From an uncultured Granulosicoccus sp. (GTDB taxonomy: Bacteria; Pseudomonadota; Gammaproteobacteria; Granulosicoccales; Granulosicoccaceae): a stretch of DNA of 36,064 bases. A model generated the notes under the pieces. The model was not told the origin of the DNA and searched no databases. It worked only from the letters and a program-made list of their open reading frames with translations. Location of the stretch: positions 1 to 36,064 of the forward strand of contig CALKLO010000044.1 in the NCBI GenBank assembly GCA_937991945.1. The letters are read 5' to 3'. Shown here in pieces: positions 1 to 9,628 of this stretch; position 1 is the first letter of the stretch; each line of letters opens with the position of its first letter. Made by a program: the position numbers and the translations under genes.

Positions 1-1544
1 TCGGTCAGCTCAGGCCCTCGCCCCGTGGGTACGAAATCAGGGTCGCTGGTGATAACAAATTTATCAATAGCCAGGCCGTCTTCGCGCATCCAGAAGTTGA
101 TCGCATTGATGCCTGCGTCAACGATGTTTAGTGTCGCTACAGCATCGCTAGGCGTATTGCGTGACCATGTCCATTCGGCAGGAAAATTATCGACTCGATA
201 CGCCGTGCTGGCAAGGGTGCCATTGAGCCCCACTTGCACACTGTCACTATTACCGATACCTGACTCATTAGTGTCACCTAAACCGCGAATCCATAAGTAG
301 TGTTTACCCGCGTGATTAAAGTTAACCAAGTAGCTCAACATAGGCGTAGCGTCTGTGGTGTCTGCTAGCTCGCCTTGGTCAGGTGTAGTAACCATTGCAC
401 CGTCACTGCTCGAATCACCCAGAGCCGTTTGAACCCACTGGTGTGTCTCTGTACTCGTCTCAGCATCAAAATACTCAGCTTCCATAGAGATGAACGATGC
501 ACCTTCAGGTGTATTCGAGCCTGGCACTATTTCAATGGGTACTGGGTCATCATCTACCAACAACGACCTAACACGGTTAGTTGATTCCTGTGCAATAGGT
601 GCTCCGCCGCCAGCAACAATAAGATGCCCATCAATTATTCGAGCAACCGGTGCTACTAGCTCATCCAGCAACGTTCTAAACGTTGTCCAACTATCGGTAG
701 CCGGGTCATATTTCAATACCTTGTCTTTAGCATTCTCACCACCGGTGGTATAGATCTCGTCTTTATAGACAAACGTACCTGGCTCAGAATGCGAGTTTAT
801 AGTAGGCATGCTGGTTTTTTCAGACCACGTATTAGTGGCTGGATTATAAGCATGCACTAAGTCAGTATCTTGTGTGAACTTACCCGGGCATGAGTCATGA
901 CCATACTGACCGCCCATGGCGTAAATGATGTCGTCAACCACCGCCGTTGAAAAGTGATTACGCGGGCTTGGCATAGGAGCGGTGGCCGTTAGACTCTGCC
1001 AACCTTCAGAAGGCGCATCAAGGTCATACACAACATGATCACCCACATCACAACTTGCATCTTCATCAATGCCACCAAACCAATGTATTTTGTTGTCAAC
1101 CAGTGCAGCTCCACCAGCAGCTCCCGGTCTTGGTAGTTCCGGCCCACTACGCCAGGTGTTGGTATCTAGGTTGTAGATCCAAACGTTGTCTGTCACCAGA
1201 CCCGGGTGACTACCAATGCGCCCCCCAATAATCCATACATCAGCACCAATTCTGACAACGCCGTTATGCGTTACGGCAGAACCATGAGCCGTAGAGGTGG
1301 AGCTGACGATACTCCACTGCTGAGTGGCTAAATCGTATTTCTCTACAGAATTGGCGATGATGATGCCGGGGCTGAATCCGTTGAATACATAAATGTCACC
1401 GCGATAGTCCACCGTGGTGGCTTCAACTCGAGCCACTTGCATATCTGCTCGATCTTCCCAGCTTTGCGCCGATGCCAGCCCGGAGCCTCCTAGCAATCCC
1501 AAAACAACTATGATTTTTTTAGCTAAATGGCTTTTGAAATTCAT
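1..1544 (-). CDS. Secreted Kelch-repeat protein with C-terminal carbohydrate-binding-like region (3' end outside window)
   Basis: The minus strand is open from an ATG at 1544 to the left edge: 514 codons with no stop, so the C-terminus is missing. The protein starts with a Sec signal peptide (basic n-region, hydrophobic core, Ala-Ser-Ala cleavage site near residue 26). About five Kelch-type blades follow, each with a Gly-Gly or Gly-Phe turn, then Tyr-Asp or Tyr-Asn, then a Trp ten or so residues on; this predicts a beta-propeller. Past the last blade comes a region that opens with Glu-Ala-Glu-Tyr-Phe and contains HYLWIRG and a late IDKF, the pattern of the galactose-binding-like fold at the C-terminus of GH115 and related CBM proteins. 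I infer an exported sugar-binding or surface protein; the ligand is unknown. It is divergent from yaeQ. The start is supported mainly by the signal peptide, since the Shine-Dalgarno is weak. Confidence 0.85.
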   Translation of the reverse strand, partial: MNFKSHLAKKIIVVLGLLGGSGLASAQSWEDRADMQVARVEATTVDYRGDIYVFNGFSPGIIIANSVEKYDLATQQWSIVSSTSTAHGSAVTHNGVVRIGADVWIIGGRIGSHPGLVTDNVWIYNLDTNTWRSGPELPRPGAAGGAALVDNKIHWFGGIDEDASCDVGDHVVYDLDAPSEGWQSLTATAPMPSPRNHFSTAVVDDIIYAMGGQYGHDSCPGKFTQDTDLVHAYNPATNTWSEKTSMPTINSHSEPGTFVYKDEIYTTGGENAKDKVLKYDPATDSWTTFRTLLDELVAPVARIIDGHLIVAGGGAPIAQESTNRVRSLLVDDDPVPIEIVPGSNTPEGASFISMEAEYFDAETSTETHQWVQTALGDSSSDGAMVTTPDQGELADTTDATPMLSYLVNFNHAGKHYLWIRGLGDTNESGIGNSDSVQVGLNGTLASTAYRVDNFPAEWTWSRNTPSDAVATLNIVDAGINAINFWMREDGLAIDKFVITSDPDFVPTGRGPELT

Positions 1545-1810
1545 CACGTCTTTTGAATCGATTATTGTCTGTGTTTGTATGTTCATCGCCTGTTTCAGGC
1601 CAAGCTAAAACACCAAGCTGAGGGCGTGTGATGACATCAGAATATCGAGACTAAATTAATCTTAAGTATGTGTAATAGTTCATGTTATCGACTCAACAAT
1701 TACACCGCTACGTCGTCGCCTGATTTAGCCCAGCCGGGCCGTCCAAATGGCAATTGCGACAATTTCGAACGCAACAGATTACACTTGAAGAAAACACCCT
1801 TGGGTATTCC

Positions 1811-2440: not shown

Positions 2441-5400
2441 TTACTCGCGAATATCGAAGTCTGAGAAGTCCACGCCCCGCTCCAAAGAATAAGCACGCAT
2501 ATCGCGCAACGTACCCACGGTGCCCGACAAGTGTCCTGCCACTGAGCGCATTAAGCTTGACGCAACCATAGCGTCATTCTCAATCACGGCCATAAGCTCG
2601 GTAGCACCAATACGCAGAAACATAGAATCTTCGATAGCTTCAAGTTCCAGAGGCCGCTTCTCATTGAGGATGACGGACAGATCGCCAATCAATCTCCCTG
2701 GAGCAATTTCTGCAACCAAGCGACGTTCAGTACCCTCTGACCAGTACAAGCCCGCTAAGCCTTTAATACACAGGTAGGCGGCATCAGCCTCTTCGTCTGC
2801 GGCAAAGATAGTTCGACCAGGCTCAGCGGTATACCATTGCGCACCAAACGCGAGTAGCCGTTGCTGCTTAACATCTAGCCCACCGAACAACTCTGTTTTG
2901 GCAATCTCTTTAATCTTACGGTTCAGGTCTTGTCGCGAATCAGTATCGAGTGCCTCTTCTTGCTTGACGCCGCCATCAATTCGTCCATCGACAATTTCGA
3001 CATACAGGTTGTAGTTCTCTGGATTGTTAAACCTGTTCTCAATAAATATTTTGGTCGATTCAGGCAGCAGGCTACTAATGCGCTCTCGCATTTGGTCACG
3101 CGTTTCTCGATCGTGACTAGCAAGGGAATTAGCAAGAATAAGAATATCTGGCTTCTTTATGCCTGCCCGGCTAAACGCTACCCTCTCGCGGAACACAGCC
3201 GGTAAATTACCACCGCCCGATGAGGTTGCTACATCGTAAATGGACTCCGCGGCGAGGCGACGAAACCCGTGCTCACTCAGCACATCCACAACAACATCCT
3301 CTATCAGTTTTTCACGAGCGCCCGCTATTCGAGAAATTCGTCCGAATAGTGCGTTGCCCATAACCGTCATAACAGGTATGTACTTTTGCGGGTCGATACT
3401 CTCAAACAAGCCGTCCATTGCTTGTACCATCTGCAGCCCACTACTTTTTCGAATTTGCAATATGCGCTCTTTAAACGCCTTATTAAACGCAGGTCCTATT
3501 TGCTCCGCTGAGAACGCAAACGGTACTGTCAGCATCAACGCATAGTCTTCCGCTGGCAGACCCGTGTCATCAACCTCTCGGCGCTTAGTAATGATTTCGC
3601 AAAGACGTTGGTACAGCTCTTCTTCCATATTCATTTGTCTGAATAACGGATGATCGGTGCCATCTGTACCAAACGTTGCCATCAGACTTTCAACCAACTT
3701 GACTGACATTTGCATCAGTTCATCGGCGATGCCTTGCTCACGCAGTATGCGTACGAAGTTAACGTCTTCTGATAATGATATTTGCGTTAATTCGCGAGTC
3801 GGTAATGCATACAGAAGATTGGTACCTAGCGGCGACACCGGGTTGAAGGTATCAGGGTTAAAGCCATGTACTAGCTCTGCTAAGCCTGCCTGCTTAACAC
3901 GCTGCGCAATCTCTGGTCGCAGTTGTACGATAGCCTCAGCCAACTTAGGATGACCAATAGGTGCTATTCGTGACCTTAGTGCACGGCGCACCATAAAATC
4001 ATCAGAGCCCATGGCCTGAACGAGCTGAAACCACCAATCCCGAATTTCATCAGAGGACTGCATACCTGCAACAGTAGGGTCTACCCAATCGGTGTCAAAG
4101 GCATCTACGCTGTTGCCCGATTGCTCAGCTTTGAAACGAAAGCTATCAACATCGTCCAGATCAAGATCATCATCGCGGTTGATGGGTTTGTTTTTAAAGG
4201 GAAGCAGAATGTTCTCACCCAACGTTCCTTGCATGATGTGCGGGTTTGAGTGGGCATACCCAATACGGTTAGCCAAGGTCACCTGATGTATGGTGTTAAC
4301 GTCTTGACCCGCAATGGTCACAGACCCCCGGTGCGGAATCACTTCCCGCGTGAGTAGGTCTGCAAACGCCAAAGCCGCCGCTTCGTTCTCAGCTTTGATC
4401 GCCACTCGCGCACCTTGAGGTATGGTCAGAGTGATGTCTTCAAGAACGGTACGACCTTCTTCATCGCGCACAGTCACATCGTTAAATTGAATATCGCCTT
4501 TTAAGCTGTTGACCCCTTCTGGCGTGCCTTCAAATAATTTGTCGTCCACCAATGCGCTAGGTGCAAAACGCTCCGTGACCGCCTCCCATCGTATAGCAAC
4601 ATCTTGAGTGGTGTTGTAGTAAGCCAATAGCTCTTTCCAAGGCGATGACATATCTTTGAAAGCGGCTAAGGCTGCAACGAGAGCGCCCACAGTTATGTGC
4701 CCAGTGATGGCCAAGTAGCCACCCACAGAGTAGAAAAAGAACGGAGTAAGCTGATTGATGAAGTTGTTTAAAAACTTCATGAAGAACTTCTTCTGATAGA
4801 TCTCAAACCGGATGTCGTACAGTTTTCCCAAGCGATTGGAAAACAACGCCAGTCTGTATCGCAGACCACCATTGGTTCGAATGTCGCTCACACCTGCAGC
4901 AGTCTCACCGATATCGGCTGCCAGCTGACGCACCGCTTGAATACGGCTCTTGTTCAGTAAATTTATTTGGCGCTGCAATATGGGAATGAGCCACGCCTGC
5001 AATGGAATCAGGGCGATAGCCGCCAGTCCAAACCAAACGCTTTGAGCAAACAGAAACACTAATATAGTGAGCATTTGGCCGGCTTGTAGTATGGGCTGCG
5101 AGAGCATGTCGCCCATGATTCCACCCAATGGTTCGGCTTCTGAGGTAACCATGGACACCAACTCACCTTGGCTGGTACTGCGAAAATAAGGCCGTGGGAA
5201 TTTTAAAATACGCGTCAGTAGCTGGAAACGAAATCGTCGTAACAGACGTTCTGCTAGTACACCTTTCATGGTGTTAAGCCGCATTTTCAATAGGCCGTTG
5301 ACTAGTACAGCGATCAGAAAACCGGCGCACAGCACCATTAAAAATTGTATTTGAGTAAGCGAAAATCCAAGCAATACAACGTCTTCGCCCGTACCGCCGA

Positions 5401-5536
5401 TAGCATCGTTGATGATGCGTTTGGGTAATTCTAGTGAGACGTACAGTATCGGAAAAGTCAGAAGAGTGACTAGCAGCAGAATGATCTGGTCTCGTTTAGA
5501 GTATTTCCAGATATACGTAAAAATGCTCTTTTCCAT
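2441..5536 (-). CDS. Degenerate ABC exporter-like protein with cyclic-nucleotide-binding-like C-terminus
   Basis: The 1031-residue protein starts with an ABC exporter transmembrane domain (about residues 15-325, with an EAEPLGGIMGDMLSQP-type coupling helix). A nucleotide-binding domain follows whose framework is recognisable but whose motifs are all lost. The Walker A site reads KAENEAAA (379-388) and has no P-loop Lys. The Q-loop Gln is replaced in IGYAHSNPH (425-433). The signature is SSGGGNLPAV (772-781), and Walker B lacks Asp-Glu (LILANSLASHD, 799-809). The H-loop His is Asn (IENRF, 832-836). About 320 mostly helical-looking residues (445-765) are inserted between Q-loop and signature. 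A Crp-like cNMP-binding fold occupies about 880-1005, with a GDLSVILNEKRP core. The conserved frame and continuous reading argue against a pseudogene. ATP hydrolysis looks impossible for a homodimer, so it may pair with another subunit or act as a cNMP-responsive membrane regulator (inference). The gene is monocistronic and follows the proXVW terminator region. Confidence 0.85.
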   Translation of the reverse strand: MEKSIFTYIWKYSKRDQIILLLVTLLTFPILYVSLELPKRIINDAIGGTGEDVVLLGFSLTQIQFLMVLCAGFLIAVLVNGLLKMRLNTMKGVLAERLLRRFRFQLLTRILKFPRPYFRSTSQGELVSMVTSEAEPLGGIMGDMLSQPILQAGQMLTILVFLFAQSVWFGLAAIALIPLQAWLIPILQRQINLLNKSRIQAVRQLAADIGETAAGVSDIRTNGGLRYRLALFSNRLGKLYDIRFEIYQKKFFMKFLNNFINQLTPFFFYSVGGYLAITGHITVGALVAALAAFKDMSSPWKELLAYYNTTQDVAIRWEAVTERFAPSALVDDKLFEGTPEGVNSLKGDIQFNDVTVRDEEGRTVLEDITLTIPQGARVAIKAENEAAALAFADLLTREVIPHRGSVTIAGQDVNTIHQVTLANRIGYAHSNPHIMQGTLGENILLPFKNKPINRDDDLDLDDVDSFRFKAEQSGNSVDAFDTDWVDPTVAGMQSSDEIRDWWFQLVQAMGSDDFMVRRALRSRIAPIGHPKLAEAIVQLRPEIAQRVKQAGLAELVHGFNPDTFNPVSPLGTNLLYALPTRELTQISLSEDVNFVRILREQGIADELMQMSVKLVESLMATFGTDGTDHPLFRQMNMEEELYQRLCEIITKRREVDDTGLPAEDYALMLTVPFAFSAEQIGPAFNKAFKERILQIRKSSGLQMVQAMDGLFESIDPQKYIPVMTVMGNALFGRISRIAGAREKLIEDVVVDVLSEHGFRRLAAESIYDVATSSGGGNLPAVFRERVAFSRAGIKKPDILILANSLASHDRETRDQMRERISSLLPESTKIFIENRFNNPENYNLYVEIVDGRIDGGVKQEEALDTDSRQDLNRKIKEIAKTELFGGLDVKQQRLLAFGAQWYTAEPGRTIFAADEEADAAYLCIKGLAGLYWSEGTERRLVAEIAPGRLIGDLSVILNEKRPLELEAIEDSMFLRIGATELMAVIENDAMVASSLMRSVAGHLSGTVGTLRDMRAYSLERGVDFSDFDIRE

Positions 5537-5781: not shown

Positions 5782-7359
5782 CTAGTGGCCGCTGACTTTA
5801 CGTCTGTACATACCCTGTGCAATGCGATCGATGACCATGGCGCATAGCAAGATGGCAAGCCCACCTAGCAGTCCTTGGCCTTTCGCGGCGTATTGCAGAG
5901 CTTCGAGTATTAGAGCGCCCAGGCCTTCCGCACCGATCAGGGATGCAATGACCACCATACTCAACGACATCAGAATGGTTTGGTTGACGCCTGTCATGAT
6001 GGACGGCAAGGCTAACGGCAGCTCTACATTCTTAAGTAGCTGCCACTTGGAACAGCCAAATGCGACTGCTGCCTCTTTGGTGGTTTCAGGAACACCTTTC
6101 ATGCCGAGTGCCGTTAAACGAATGACCGGTGGCATAGCAAAAATTAGCGTGGCTAATACACCTGGCGGTTTGCCGGTACCAAAGAAGGCAATAATAGGAA
6201 TGAGGTACACGAACGCTGGCATGGTTTGCATGAAATCGAGAACAGGCTCTGCAAACGTGTAGGCCCGGCGTGACTTACCAAACCAGATGCCCAGCGGTAT
6301 GCCAATAAGAATACATAAAAAGGCACCTGCGCCAATCAACGCCACCGTGATCATGGACATCTCCCACAAGCCCATAAATGCGAGATAAAACAATGACGCA
6401 GCCGTAAAGACGGCCACTCGAGGACCCGCTAAGCGAAAGGCCATAACCACTATCACGATCATGACAACCGGCCATGGCGTATCGATGAGCACGATTTCCA
6501 GCCCATCTAGGACAGAGCGAATAACCGCTGTGATGCCATCAAAGACATCACTAAAATGCAGCGCCAGCCAATCGAAACCAGCATCACCGTATTTCGCAAA
6601 CTTGGCTAAGTACTCGCGCCCTATTGGAAACTCGGTGAGTGGAATTTTCTCACCCAAAAAACCGTTGGTTAATGCTGCTAGTTTTCCATCAGGGTCTGAG
6701 ACTGTAAACCTAAAGAGTGTCAGCGGCCAGATGGCTAATAGCATCAAGCCGCCAAACCATAAGCCAGCTTTACTAGTACCCGACGACACACTGGCAGGTT
6801 TTGCTCGCCACGTTAAATACTGTTTTTCGTAAGCGATATTTGCGTAAAAACCTTCTAGCAATTTTATGAAAATAAGTATGGCGATGCCTGTCAGTAGAAT
6901 GCTGGTAGCCTCGTTGCCTGCAAGCTCGGCTTGCTCTTTGGCCGTATCGGCAACACGTGCCAGATTGTCGGCAATTTTTTGCTTAGCGGCTGCACCTGCT
7001 GTGTCGCCAGCTGCCAGTAATTCTTTTACCTGAGCTTCGCGCTTGGCGATGTTGGCTGAGAGTTTTTCAAAGCGTGCTAATTGATCCGCACCCAGCTCCC
7101 CCCACAACCCTCTTCCGATTTGTACAAAGGCAAAGAGTTCAAGCACCAAGAATGTCCAAAAGAAACCCCACACTCCCCGAAACGCTGCCCATATGGGCCC
7201 TAACGCTGCAGCGGCTGTATTCCAAGAGAACACAACGCTTGTTGCGTCTTGTATTTTGCTAAATGCACCTGCGTAGTACTCGTTATTTTCTTGGGTGAAT
7301 TCGCTGATGGATGCATCTAATGAACGAGGGCCAAGTTCTAAGCCAGTATCGGTGCTCAT
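5782..7359 (-). CDS. proW: Glycine betaine/proline-type ABC importer permease (ProW-like, enlarged N-terminus)
   Basis: Membrane permease of a betaine-type (ProU/OpuA) importer. The C-terminal ~240 residues are the typical ProW core, with the cytoplasmic coupling loop KEAAVAFGCSKWQLLKNVELP-like at about 428-448 and at least five membrane spans. The protein is 525 residues against about 354 for E. coli ProW. The extra N-terminus has a membrane span at about 53-80, an Ala/Lys/Glu-rich region likely to form a coiled coil (88-150), and further spans at about 152-172 and 198-217. The start overlaps the proV stop by 4 nt (ATGA), indicating translational coupling. Order and strand (proX, proV, proW) fit a complete importer. 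Substrate is inferred from the family: quaternary amines such as betaine or choline, or related compounds. Confidence 0.9.
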   Translation of the reverse strand: MSTDTGLELGPRSLDASISEFTQENNEYYAGAFSKIQDATSVVFSWNTAAAALGPIWAAFRGVWGFFWTFLVLELFAFVQIGRGLWGELGADQLARFEKLSANIAKREAQVKELLAAGDTAGAAAKQKIADNLARVADTAKEQAELAGNEATSILLTGIAILIFIKLLEGFYANIAYEKQYLTWRAKPASVSSGTSKAGLWFGGLMLLAIWPLTLFRFTVSDPDGKLAALTNGFLGEKIPLTEFPIGREYLAKFAKYGDAGFDWLALHFSDVFDGITAVIRSVLDGLEIVLIDTPWPVVMIVIVVMAFRLAGPRVAVFTAASLFYLAFMGLWEMSMITVALIGAGAFLCILIGIPLGIWFGKSRRAYTFAEPVLDFMQTMPAFVYLIPIIAFFGTGKPPGVLATLIFAMPPVIRLTALGMKGVPETTKEAAVAFGCSKWQLLKNVELPLALPSIMTGVNQTILMSLSMVVIASLIGAEGLGALILEALQYAAKGQGLLGGLAILLCAMVIDRIAQGMYRRKVSGH

Positions 7360-8405
7360 GCTTTGCCTCCCTTAATGCCTTTTAACAACGTTGCTCGAGT
7401 GACCACACCAACATCCTTGTTGTCGTCATCGGTGATGATGATGGGATGCTCTGTTGTGGTAGACACATCGATCAACGTATCGAGATCGGTCCCATGGGGA
7501 ACACGCGGACTCTGAGTCAAGTCATCGGTGCTGCGTGGTACAAACTCGTCAATGGGCACCATGATGGATCGGGCAAACACCAATTTTAGCTTTGAGATAC
7601 CTTCAACAAAATCGCTGACGTATTGATCAGCCGGTTGGGTGACTATTTGCTCGGGCGTACCAATTTGCACGATACGTCCGTCTTTCATAATAGCGATACG
7701 ATCACCGATGCGAATAGCTTCATCAAGATCATGGGTAATAAAAACGGTGGTTTTATTCATCTCAGCTGACAAGGCCATGAATTGATCTTGTAGTTGTCGA
7801 CGAATGAGTGGATCTAGTGCGGAGAACGGCTCATCCATTAACAGCACTTCAGGATCTGAGGCTAAGGCTCTCGCTAACCCTACTCGCTGTTGCATACCCC
7901 CTGATAGTTCACTGGGGAAACGGTCTTCGTAACCGTCTAAGTTAACGCGGGTTAAGCAACGTTGCGAGACTTCCCAGCGCCGCGATTTAGGCTCACCGCG
8001 TATTTGCAGCGGAAAACCGACGTTGTCGCGTACGGTTCTGTGTGGCAGTAATGCCATGTGTTGGAACACCATACCGATATGACGTGCTCGCAGCTCACGT
8101 AGCTCTTTGGCTCCCATGGCAAGTACGTCTTTACCTAGCATGTGAATTGAGCCGGCGGTGGGTTCTATTAAGCGATTAAGATGCCGAACCATGGTGGACT
8201 TACCAGAACCGGATAAACCCATAACGCAGAATATTTCACCGCGTTTAACTTCGAAGGAACAGTCGGCGATACCCACGACACATTCGAATTCTTCTAGTAC
8301 CTCAGGCTTTCCTAGCCCTCGGGTTTTTATTGCCTGAAGCGCTTCGTCTGCGCGCTCCCCAAATATTTTCCAAACGTTTTCTAAAACGATAACGTTATCA
8401 GTCAT
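7356..8405 (-). CDS. proV: Glycine betaine/proline-type ABC importer ATPase (ProV-like)
   Basis: ATP-hydrolysing subunit of the betaine-type importer, 349 residues. Walker A GLSGSGKST is at 63-71, the Q-loop Gln at 115, the signature LSGGMQQR at 167-174, Walker B LLMDEP at 188-193 and the H-loop HD at about 225. The long N-terminal segment before Walker A (including a GERADEAL-like stretch) is typical of ProV/OpuAA rather than other ABC ATPases. The C-terminal ~70 residues (PIIITDDDNKDVGVVTR) resemble a single CBS motif; in OpuA these domains sense ionic strength, but only part of a CBS pair is visible here. The Shine-Dalgarno is poor. The gene is preceded by a strong hairpin that separates it from proX and overlaps proW by 4 nt. 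Confidence 0.93.
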   Translation of the reverse strand: MTDNVIVLENVWKIFGERADEALQAIKTRGLGKPEVLEEFECVVGIADCSFEVKRGEIFCVMGLSGSGKSTMVRHLNRLIEPTAGSIHMLGKDVLAMGAKELRELRARHIGMVFQHMALLPHRTVRDNVGFPLQIRGEPKSRRWEVSQRCLTRVNLDGYEDRFPSELSGGMQQRVGLARALASDPEVLLMDEPFSALDPLIRRQLQDQFMALSAEMNKTTVFITHDLDEAIRIGDRIAIMKDGRIVQIGTPEQIVTQPADQYVSDFVEGISKLKLVFARSIMVPIDEFVPRSTDDLTQSPRVPHGTDLDTLIDVSTTTEHPIIITDDDNKDVGVVTRATLLKGIKGGKA

Positions 8406-8462
8406 AGGAGATACGCATCCGAGGGCTGTAGTTAGGGAAGATGTATTGAATAACGCTATTAA

Positions 8463-8490
8463 CTTGCAGCCCCGCTAGTGGGGCTGCAAG
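8463..8490 (-). terminator. Intercistronic hairpin between proX and proV
   Basis: A perfect 11-bp stem (CTTGCAGCCCC / GGGGCTGCAAG) with a 6-nt loop lies just after the proX stop. It lacks a following T-run, so partial termination or 3' protection of the proX message is more likely than full termination. This is a common way of making more binding protein than membrane subunits. Confidence 0.65.
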
Positions 8491-8516
8491 TGTTAGTGCA
8501 GACTAAAACTGATAAC

Positions 8517-9473
8517 TTACTGCAACCAACCATCAACGATTTCAGCGTTGTCTTCAACCCACTTGGCAGCGAACTCTGCAGGGTCTTCTTTGTTAACAAC
8601 CAATGCATAGGTCATGGCAGATACTGTATCTGTATCTAGAGATACCTTTGACAACATAGCGGCGGCTTCTGGCTGATCTGTCTCTAGCGATGCGGCATAG
8701 TGGATGTGCAAAAATGCTGTGCTCCACGCAACGCCTGCTTCAGATTTTTCTAACCATTCTGGATCGTCAGTCGGTTGAATAACGCTCCATGCTGCAGCAT
8801 CGTGAGCGGGTTCTTTCAAGATAACCAACTCATGCAATGCAAACATATGATGCGGTGTGTAACAGAAGAATGTAATGTTTTCGTCTTTTGCAACAGCTGC
8901 ATCAACCTCTGCCAGCGCAAGCGTCTCATCCATTTCTTTCAATGTCATAGTGGCATCGTAGCCATACGACTTTGCACGAATTTTTTCAACGTTAGTTGAT
9001 GCCCAACCTGCAGCACCGATCCAGATTTCACCCATGCCATCGCCATCTGTGTCGAAGTTTTTGGCCATTTCAGGATCCGTTAGATCGCTCAGGTTTTCGA
9101 TACCTGTTCGCTCAGCGGTTCCCTTGGTCACGCACATGGCTTGATCGCCTGCAACGCCGTTAGGGTTCATACGTACGGTTTTTTTATCACCGACATATTT
9201 GTCGTTTAGGTTTGTTTGATTTGGCAGCCAGACTTCAGGGTGCACATGCATTGAACCGGAATCCATTGCTTCAAACACAACCGGATTTGTACCATTTTGC
9301 AATTCAACTTCTAGACCTAAGTTGTTTTCCATGGCAACTTTGAGTACGTGTGCAGTAACAAGTACCGAAGGCCAGTTGGGCACACCGATAACAACATCAG
9401 CAGCCTGAGCTGCAGTACCGTAGGCCGTCATGGCCGTGACGCAACTAATTGCTAGTAGTTTTTTAGAACGCAT
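8517..9473 (-). CDS. proX: Glycine betaine-type periplasmic substrate-binding protein (ProX-like)
   Basis: Periplasmic binding protein that delivers substrate to ProW. The ATG at 9473 has a GGAGAG Shine-Dalgarno 6-7 nt upstream. It yields 318 residues beginning with a clean Sec signal peptide ending in Ala-Gln-Ala; an in-frame ATG at 9500 would add nine residues and lacks this site. The mature protein follows the OpuAC/ProX type-II binding-protein pattern: VVIGVPNWPSVLVTAHVL near the start, HVHPEVWLPN, a GWAST segment, FFCYTPHHMFALHEL and Trp-rich segments that could form an aromatic cage for a quaternary amine. Asp-rich DTDGDGMGE (about 150) looks like a surface, possibly cation-binding, loop. 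It is the first gene of the proXVW operon. The 240 nt upstream contains no gene. Confidence 0.9.
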   Translation of the reverse strand: MRSKKLLAISCVTAMTAYGTAAQAADVVIGVPNWPSVLVTAHVLKVAMENNLGLEVELQNGTNPVVFEAMDSGSMHVHPEVWLPNQTNLNDKYVGDKKTVRMNPNGVAGDQAMCVTKGTAERTGIENLSDLTDPEMAKNFDTDGDGMGEIWIGAAGWASTNVEKIRAKSYGYDATMTLKEMDETLALAEVDAAVAKDENITFFCYTPHHMFALHELVILKEPAHDAAAWSVIQPTDDPEWLEKSEAGVAWSTAFLHIHYAASLETDQPEAAAMLSKVSLDTDTVSAMTYALVVNKEDPAEFAAKWVEDNAEIVDGWLQ

Positions 9474-9628
9474 AAAACTCTCCGAATGTAGGATTTTCAT
9501 GGTGGCTGAGGATCCGCCTAATGAGGGCTCAGACTAATAACCTCGAGTTAATCCTACTGGCTCGCTGCGTAATTTTCCACCTTCTTGTAAGTTTTTTAAG
9601 AACTAAGTAAAAAATTTAGCTGAGCTGA

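What the first reader, a model, noticed from the sequence alone, without database searches (positions are those of the whole stretch)
2441..5536. Five-motif-dead ABC exporter with a 320-residue insert and a cNMP-binding-like domain
The transmembrane domain and the framework of the nucleotide-binding domain are well kept, but Walker A (KAENEAAA), the Q-loop, Walker B (LANSLASHD in place of the Asp-Glu), the signature and the H-loop are all lost. A helical block sits between Q-loop and signature, and a Crp-like fold ends the chain. The frame is intact, so selection appears to hold a non-ATPase function: perhaps a cNMP-sensing membrane regulator, a partner for an active half-transporter, or a scaffold.
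Basis: partly seen in the sequence, partly recalled or inferred. Interest (0 to 1): 0.72.

Follow-up and report, generated by a model that had tools for sequence, protein, structure and literature searches.

The report
ATP-dead exporter with cyclic-nucleotide receptor
This gene belongs to a widespread, apparently undescribed family of bacterial membrane proteins built like ATP-driven exporters that have lost the ATP-burning machinery but carry a receptor-like domain for cyclic nucleotides, and many relatives sit beside genes that build surface sugars.

Summary
ORF 2441-5536 (-) is an intact 1031-aa ABC-exporter-like protein: transmembrane domain, nucleotide-binding domain (NBD) with all five ATP motifs lost, about 290 extra residues between Q-loop and signature, and a C-terminal CRP-type domain. 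It is no decaying pseudogene: of 322 relatives found, the 80 kept are uninterrupted, none of the five motifs is complete in any of 91 clade members, and pairwise dN/dS in the clade averages 0.14 (0.10-0.17 by domain; no pair includes the window gene). The clade belongs to a larger family, in 130 of 385 genomes of one class (inferred Alphaproteobacteria). None of 100 scorable further members keeps a complete ATP motif set. The insert is a tandem repeat (hhalign E 7e-15), probably copied from the NBD's own Q-loop/helical segment. Most relatives keep a canonical cyclic-nucleotide cassette, fused or as a neighbouring gene, and 34 of 59 non-clade loci lie beside the same glycosyltransferases, 11 of 59 near a class III cyclase. 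Best reading: a homodimeric membrane protein switched by a cyclic nucleotide instead of ATP, an ATP-independent gate in surface-glycan assembly. Ligand, substrate and transport are untested; a transport-free sensor or scaffold is a serious rival. I found no paper describing the family.

The parts
2441..5536 (-). whole ORF, 1031 aa, ABC-exporter-like protein with CNB domain
4547..5536 (-). transmembrane domain, residues 1-330; lowest dN of the parts of the clade (mean 0.073)
   Evidence: Pfam ABC_membrane 39-293; model m720ca056a670
4199..4504 (-). first part of the pseudo-NBD, residues 345-446
   Evidence: ABC_tran 365-458, below cut-off; whole-model match to exporters Z about 24
4370..4393 (-). 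Walker A position, residues 382-389, key residues lost
4247..4249 (-). Q-loop position, S430 in place of Gln
3233..4198 (-). insert between Q-loop and signature, residues 447-768
   Evidence: models
3683..3949 (-). insert repeat R2, about residues 530-618 (limits approximate)
   Evidence: hhalign R2 vs R3 E 7.2e-15, probability 98.4
3224..3481 (-). insert repeat R3, about residues 686-771 (limits approximate), runs into the remnant signature
   Evidence: NCBIfam PhnT matches 721-827
3191..3205 (-). ABC signature position, LPAVF (778-782) in place of LSGGQ
3128..3142 (-). Walker B position, residues 799-803, D-E replaced by A-N
2573..2824 (-). cyclic-nucleotide-binding-type domain, residues 905-988
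   Evidence: Pfam PF00027 1.3e-10
2654..2695 (-). phosphate-binding-cassette region, residues 948-961; G951, D952 and R961 invariant in 57 aligned clade members
2480..2572 (-). long C-terminal helix, residues 989-1019, in the place of the CRP dimerisation helix (that role is recalled)
   Evidence: AF2 model

Best explanation
The gene encodes a member, without any complete ATP motif, of a large and apparently unnamed family of degenerate ABC exporters ('insert family'). Shown here: exporter-type transmembrane domain, pseudo-NBD carrying a tandemly repeated insert, attached CRP-type domain (in relatives attached or encoded nearby), purifying selection on every domain of the clade, and linkage of the wider family to glycosyltransferase genes and, less often, to a class III cyclase. 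Inferred: the protein is a homodimer whose NBD-like halves no longer run an ATP cycle; a cyclic nucleotide (or related ligand) at the CNB domain changes how the two halves pack, the insert and pseudo-NBD pass this to the transmembrane helices, and these open or close an ATP-independent path (or scrambling route) for a glycan- or glycolipid-related substrate. In short, the ATP switch has been exchanged for a cyclic-nucleotide switch.
For: No complete ATP motif in 91 of 91 clade members, and no complete set of K+[ST], Q, D, E, H in 100 scorable relatives (control). Selection: mean dN over mean dS 0.10 (TMD), 0.14, 0.17 (insert), 0.11 and 0.14 (CNB) over 86 clade pairs. Cassette: Glu 28 of 31 and Arg 31 of 31 in other fused members, Glu 33 of 37 and Arg 36 of 37 in stand-alone CNB genes, Asp 89 of 90 and Arg 90 of 90 in the clade. 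Class III cyclase with the expected motifs near relatives, 11 of 59 non-clade loci, and a 72% identical cyclase in the window's own genome. Glycosyltransferases in the flanks of 34 of 59 non-clade loci, and clade members themselves in that cluster at L127, L133, L134, L135. Transmembrane-only relatives of 331 and 327 aa, L120 and L121. Tandem insert.
Against: The window copy lies outside the sugar cluster, beside a proXWV-like importer (names by eye). In the clade the cassette Glu is Asp (89 of 90) and the PRTAT part is lost, so ligand binding may have changed or gone. 25 of 59 non-clade loci have no such glycosyltransferase in the fetched flank and 48 of 59 no such cyclase (some contigs are short). 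Some relatives end in a GGDEF-like domain without the GGDEF motif, which suits a sensor or scaffold. The family is patchy in the window's genus. Homodimerisation, ligand, substrate and transport were not tested.
Confidence: 0.42

Rival explanations
1. Transport-free membrane sensor or scaffold: the exporter fold serves only as a dimeric membrane anchor that senses lipid or glycan state and controls partners (cyclase, glycosyltransferases) through its CNB domain.
For: Pseudo-NBD, CNB and, in eight relatives of 1174-1225 aa, a C-terminal tail without the GG(D/E)EF motif (Pfam GGDEF found in the three of them that were run) look like a chain of retired enzymes used as binding modules. Cyclases lie near 11 of 59 non-clade loci.
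Against: The transmembrane domain has the lowest dN (0.073) and transmembrane-only relatives exist, which points to work done in the membrane; neither excludes a sensor.
Confidence: 0.35
2. Degenerate half of a heterodimer with an active half-exporter encoded elsewhere, as in TmrAB or TM287/288 but with more loss.
For: The structure matches include chains of the heterodimers TM287/288 and TmrAB; degenerate partners are normal in such pairs (recalled).
Against: Only 3 of 158 loci have another exporter-type gene in the fetched stretch (probes from the own genome, 300 or more aligned residues). Both motif halves (Walker A/B and signature) are lost, so it could complete neither site (inference). 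A partner encoded elsewhere in the genome was not searched for.
Confidence: 0.1
3. Still an ATP-binding, perhaps weakly hydrolysing, exporter with unusual motifs.
For: Some relatives keep parts: Walker A Lys 48 of 102, Lys+[Ser/Thr] 5 of 102, Q 23 of 102, Walker B D-E 9 of 102, both Walker motifs in L152-L154. In the clade the Walker B Asp remains in 48 of 91 and the D-loop Asp in 71 of 91.
Against: In the clade the Walker A Lys, Q-loop Gln, Walker B Glu and H-loop His are absent in 91 of 91, and in the window the Walker B Asp is gone too.
Confidence: 0.08
4. Decaying pseudogene copy.
For: Loss of all five motifs taken alone.
Against: The window ORF and 80 of 80 kept relatives are uninterrupted; mean dN/dS 0.14 in the clade (window gene not in the pairs); losses shared by a clade with support 100.
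Confidence: 0.02

Closest known systems
Type IV ABC exporters (MsbA, PCAT1, TM287/288, TmrAB)
   Same: Transmembrane domain and NBD framework; VIA-align Z about 24 over about 410 residues; NCBIfam best hit MsbA_lipidA 122 bits
   Different: All five ATP motifs lost; score far below the MsbA cut-off of 602 bits; about 290 extra residues inside the NBD; CNB domain added
SbmA-like peptide transporters (SLiPT)
   Same: ABC-exporter transmembrane fold working without ATP (abstract of PMC13316013)
   Different: SbmA is related to the transmembrane domain of ABC transporters and driven by protons (abstract); here a pseudo-NBD and a CNB domain remain, and the energy source, if any, is unknown
HetC, a peptidase-containing ABC exporter with a CNB domain (Nostoc)
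   Same: ABC exporter fused to a cyclic-nucleotide-binding domain; [quoted passage not shown]
   Different: HetC's CNB is N-terminal, it has a peptidase domain, and the catalytic residue of its ATPase domain is essential
CFTR and SUR (recalled; SUR2 structures also appear)
   Same: ABC fold turned into a channel or a channel regulator with degenerate ATP sites
   Different: They keep ATP control (recalled); here no ATP motif is complete and a CNB domain is present
CRP/FNR and PKA-type CNB domains (best PDB sequence match 5d1i)
   Same: PF00027 domain; most relatives carry the G-E ... R cassette
   Different: Joined to a pseudo-exporter; clade has Glu to Asp; Pfam showed no DNA-binding domain

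Membership tests
Type IV ABC exporter | exporter-type transmembrane domain | tested here: met
   PF00664 67.9 bits, cut-off 28; structure matches
Type IV ABC exporter | NBD recognised at the curated cut-off | tested here: not met
   PF00005 22.5 bits, cut-off 25
Type IV ABC exporter | Walker A, Q-loop, signature, Walker B and H-loop motifs | tested here: not met
   none complete in the window; 0 of 91 in the clade for each motif, though the Walker B Asp alone persists in 48 of 91; control exporters intact
Type IV ABC exporter | ATP hydrolysis | not testable with these tools
   needs purified protein
CNB (PF00027) domain proteins | domain above curated cut-off | tested here: met
   41.6 bits, cut-off 27.5
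CNB (PF00027) domain proteins | phosphate-binding cassette Glu and Arg (roles recalled) | tested here: inconclusive
   Arg 90 of 90, Glu replaced by Asp in 89 of 90 of the clade; Glu and Arg kept in most other members
CNB (PF00027) domain proteins | binds a cyclic nucleotide | not testable with these tools
   needs a binding assay
SLiPT (SbmA-like) | no NBD-like domain (recalled) | tested here: not met
   pseudo-NBD present
SLiPT (SbmA-like) | proton-driven transport | not testable with these tools
   needs transport assay
HetC-like CNB exporters | intact ATPase residues | tested here: not met
Insert family (this report) | tandem-repeat insert between Q-loop and signature | tested here: met
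   matches profile A2 (the window is one of the 18 rows of A2); repeats
Insert family (this report) | fused or nearby CNB domain | tested here: met
   fused, 905-988; in relatives

The most novel reading that the evidence does not exclude
A cyclic-nucleotide-gated channel, scramblase or glycolipid flippase evolved from an ABC exporter: the ATP switch was replaced by a CRP-type receptor, the pseudo-NBD was enlarged by duplicating its own helical segment into a transmission element, and cyclases, in some members in the same gene cluster, supply the signal that opens surface-glycan passage.
Probability: 0.25. Interest if true: 0.92.

Novelty: new variant of a known kind. Interest (0 to 1): 0.74.

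Why it matters
ABC exporters are taken to be ATP-driven; few cases of the fold working without ATP are known to me (SbmA, abstract). Here a family found in about a third of sampled genomes of one class (130 of 385; class inferred to be Alphaproteobacteria) shows the loss in steps, from relatives with both Walker motifs (L152-L154) to a clade with no complete motif, while a cyclic-nucleotide-type receptor is kept. It offers a natural series in which to ask what an ABC exporter does without its engine, and a candidate cyclic-nucleotide effector for surface-glycan control in bacteria.

Tried and rejected
Pseudogene: rejected. Active partner next door: 3 of 158 loci only, L166, L252 and L255 (loci are 3.5 to 36 kb, so short ones test little). 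Function from the window's own neighbours (proXWV-like importer by eye; YaeQ and kelch proteins): not seen at the other clade loci whose neighbours I listed, so not used. In Rhodobacterales the clade often sits by folC-, accD-, ilvD- and ZapE/AFG1-like genes (39 to 47 loci for the first and last two, 32 for accD; names by eye) and a CAAX-type protease (36 loci; Pfam on one); taken as a housekeeping location, not as function.

Fold of the insert: the isolated model (259 residues, pLDDT 89.8) had no Foldseek match at E <= 0.001 and no VIA-align match at Z >= 5; best Z 3.3, 70 residues, rmsd 3.3, to PfMDR1. This shows neither a new nor a known fold. The link of repeat R1 (native Q-loop stretch) to R2 and R3 is weak alone (E 4.7e-4 and 3.5e-4, probability 32 and 37%). 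Clade A alone gives R2-R3 E 3.1e-5, probability 73.

My first Q-loop column was one position off; corrected, only the corrected Q counts are used. In one search two loci (L176, L180), labelled non-A by a score limit, belong to clade A by the tree (rows L151 and L156, the same genes); I took them out, 61 to 59; neither has a glycosyltransferase. L168 and L177 stay among the non-A though not placed on the tree. In one search one 'other fused' row (L200) looks like an unaligned tail, so 31 may be 30. In one search infinite dS values (two pairs, second NBD part) were left out of the dS sum; no pair includes the window gene or another Granulosicoccaceae copy, whose synonymous sites are too far apart under my dS limit.

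Limits: the motif census (193 different of 203 proteins; identical sequences dropped) rests on loci that scored best (30 loci each, against 130 positive genomes) and on profile A2, built from 18 Granulosicoccaceae sequences, so it is not a random sample; and members found with the insert profile carry the insert by construction. Loci in the neighbour count are not independent (several come from one genome or from close relatives). The longest-ORF picker misreads high-GC loci, so markers were searched by tblastn.

Papers: searches returned nothing; 32 (20 of 144 listed) and 49 (5 listed) gave listings, from which only HetC was opened, in passages; one gave the SbmA paper, abstract and outline seen. 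That I found no paper on the family rests on these searches of an open-licence library, in which most subscription papers are missing.
Full report
Check. The ORF at 2441-5536 (-) codes for 1031 aa without interruption. Pfam sees an exporter transmembrane domain and a cyclic-nucleotide-binding-type (CNB) domain; the ABC_tran match covers only the first part of the NBD and stays below the curated cut-off. Comparisons place it with type IV exporters: NCBIfam MsbA_lipidA 2.2e-35 but 122 bits against a cut-off of 602; the AF2 model, mean pLDDT 79.7 and pTM 0.64, aligns to TM287/288, PCAT1 and TmrAB at Z about 24, about 410 residues, rmsd 3 to 5.

Relatives. 322 encoding stretches were found in genome contigs and the best 80 kept, with best-segment identity 51-82%, most from records labelled Granulosicoccaceae or Rhodobacterales. 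All 80 give one uninterrupted ORF of 916 to 1102 aa; L012, the 916, runs off its contig. The paralogue in the own genome (L002/L116, 30% identity) is degenerate too.

Motifs. I collected 203 proteins, 193 of them different. By identity to the window (45% or more over aligned columns) 91 form clade A and 102 are other members. Clade A: Walker A Lys 0 of 91, Q-loop Gln 0, Walker B D-E pair 0, signature Gln 0, His 0; the Walker B Asp alone remains in 48 and the D-loop Asp in 71. Others: Lys 48 of 102, Lys+[Ser/Thr] 5, Gln 23, D-E 9, His 20; among the 100 with both the Walker A and Q-loop columns filled none has all of K+[ST], Q, D, E and H. L152-L154 keep both Walker motifs. Three ordinary exporters of the own genome read as intact in the same columns. 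So the decay is graded over the family and complete as to motifs in clade A.

Selection. Over 86 clade pairs with dS under 1.2 and 70 to 98.5% identity (pairs not independent; none includes the window gene or another Granulosicoccaceae copy), mean dN over mean dS is 0.10 for the transmembrane domain, 0.14 first NBD part, 0.17 insert, 0.11 second NBD part, 0.14 CNB and 0.14 overall. Every part is constrained; the transmembrane part has the lowest dN (0.073).

Insert. From the Q-site to the signature there are 348 residues in the window against 56, 61 and 56 in three ordinary exporters (the latter counted by hand from the printed segments). Comparing alignment slices, residues 520-655 (R2) and 660-792 (R3) match with hhalign probability 98.4 and E 7.2e-15 (single comparison); slices from four other parts of the protein, five column shuffles and a reversed slice gave E 0.056 or worse. 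Both repeats carry an 'eNilFG'-type motif like the one that follows the Q-loop in ordinary exporters, and the AF2 secondary structure repeats in the same order. R1, the native Q-loop stretch, matches R2 and R3 only weakly, but some ABC-type NCBIfam models have their best match to the stretch up to about residue 445 and others to 721-827 or 740-838. That the two repeats match each other is shown; that they come from the NBD's own Q-loop/helical segment is likely but weaker.

Spread. With insert profile A2, at E <= 1e-8, 31 of 398 genomes of the window's phylum (own included), 130 of 385 genomes of the class of G137 and 43 of 100 of the order of G300 have a match. In the window's genus the family is patchy; G017, rated 100% complete, lacks it. 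In a quick tree of 130 rows (SH-aLRT only; 41 of 127 inner branches under 80) clade A is one clade with support 100, and the Granulosicoccaceae copies lie inside a set that is otherwise mostly Rhodobacterales-labelled, which suggests transfer between the classes.

CNB domain. Members with a C-terminal CNB and members followed by a small CNB gene both exist; B-type members of Granulosicoccaceae can have both. The cassette reads like FGELALLCDVPRTATVRA in many; Glu 28 of 31 and Arg 31 of 31 in other fused members (one row perhaps an artefact), Glu 33 of 37 and Arg 36 of 37 in stand-alone genes. The clade has Asp in 89 of 90 and Arg in 90 of 90, and in the rows I saw lacks the PRTAT part. Whether it binds cAMP, cGMP, c-di-GMP, ppGpp or nothing is open; HetC's CNB binds ppGpp (passages of PMC10986499).

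Neighbours. In own-genome locus L116 the paralogue lies among two GT28-type and one GT4-type (Pfam Glycos_transf_1) glycosyltransferases, an MscS-type channel, a protein I call deacetylase-like by eye (no Pfam match), a GNAT and a DUF3095 protein. Searching these markers in the fetched stretches, 34 of 59 non-clade loci have at least one of the glycosyltransferases, 33 at least two, 25 the deacetylase-like gene and 11 the class III cyclase (counted from the table). Among the 80 clade loci it is 3 of 80 for the glycosyltransferases (L008, L009, L010), and among 14 Granulosicoccaceae clade loci 4 of 14 (L127, L133, L134, L135; the last three are the same genes as the three). The cyclase carries the motifs expected of the class (FVDLISFT, GD; roles recalled). 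The own genome has five matches to class III cyclases, one 72% identical to that cyclase over 452 aa. Eight relatives of 1174-1225 aa carry a further C-terminal part without a GG(D/E)EF motif; the three of them run against Pfam all match GGDEF.

Mechanism. Shown: motif loss, constraint, insert repeat, CNB domain, cluster linkage of relatives. Inferred: homodimer, ligand-driven switching through insert and pseudo-NBD, and an ATP-independent path for a glycan-related substrate. Two transmembrane-only relatives, L120 (331 aa, residues 1-325, 29% identity) and L121 (327 aa, residues 2-324, 28%), show that the transmembrane part can be kept without an NBD. The main rival is a sensor or scaffold without transport, to which the GGDEF-like tails point.

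Verdict. A real, conserved and, as far as my searches show, undescribed family; the window gene is one of its most degenerate members.

Noticed in passing
   Followed up: partly
L217, L222, L226 (Pfam-tested); L224, L225, L228, L230, L235 (by length and motif search only): Pseudo-ABC + CNB + C-terminal GGDEF-like domain in one chain, without the GG(D/E)EF motif.
   Followed up: partly
L120:7315-8310, L121:2329-3312: Stand-alone transmembrane-domain relatives of 331 and 327 aa with no NBD.
   Followed up: partly
L014:11607-12803 (-): A second, partial relative (398 aa) next to the full-length clade gene.
   Followed up: no
L116:13877-15058, L100:11762-12973, L169: DUF3095 proteins look cyclase-like by eye (DI.SST, FGGDGAT) and recur near some family members.
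   Followed up: no
L166: One genome (G137) has three insert-family copies, one beside an exporter/HlyD-like pair (names by eye; exporter also).
   Followed up: partly
window 5782-9500: proXWV-like importer genes (by eye) directly upstream on the same strand, 245 bases from the gene; not seen at other loci listed.
   Followed up: partly
window 1-1586: Kelch-repeat protein cut by the window start, with a GH115 C-terminal-like domain.
   Followed up: no
tree: Granulosicoccaceae clade A and C-type copies nest inside copies from other groups, suggesting transfer of gene and cluster.
   Followed up: partly
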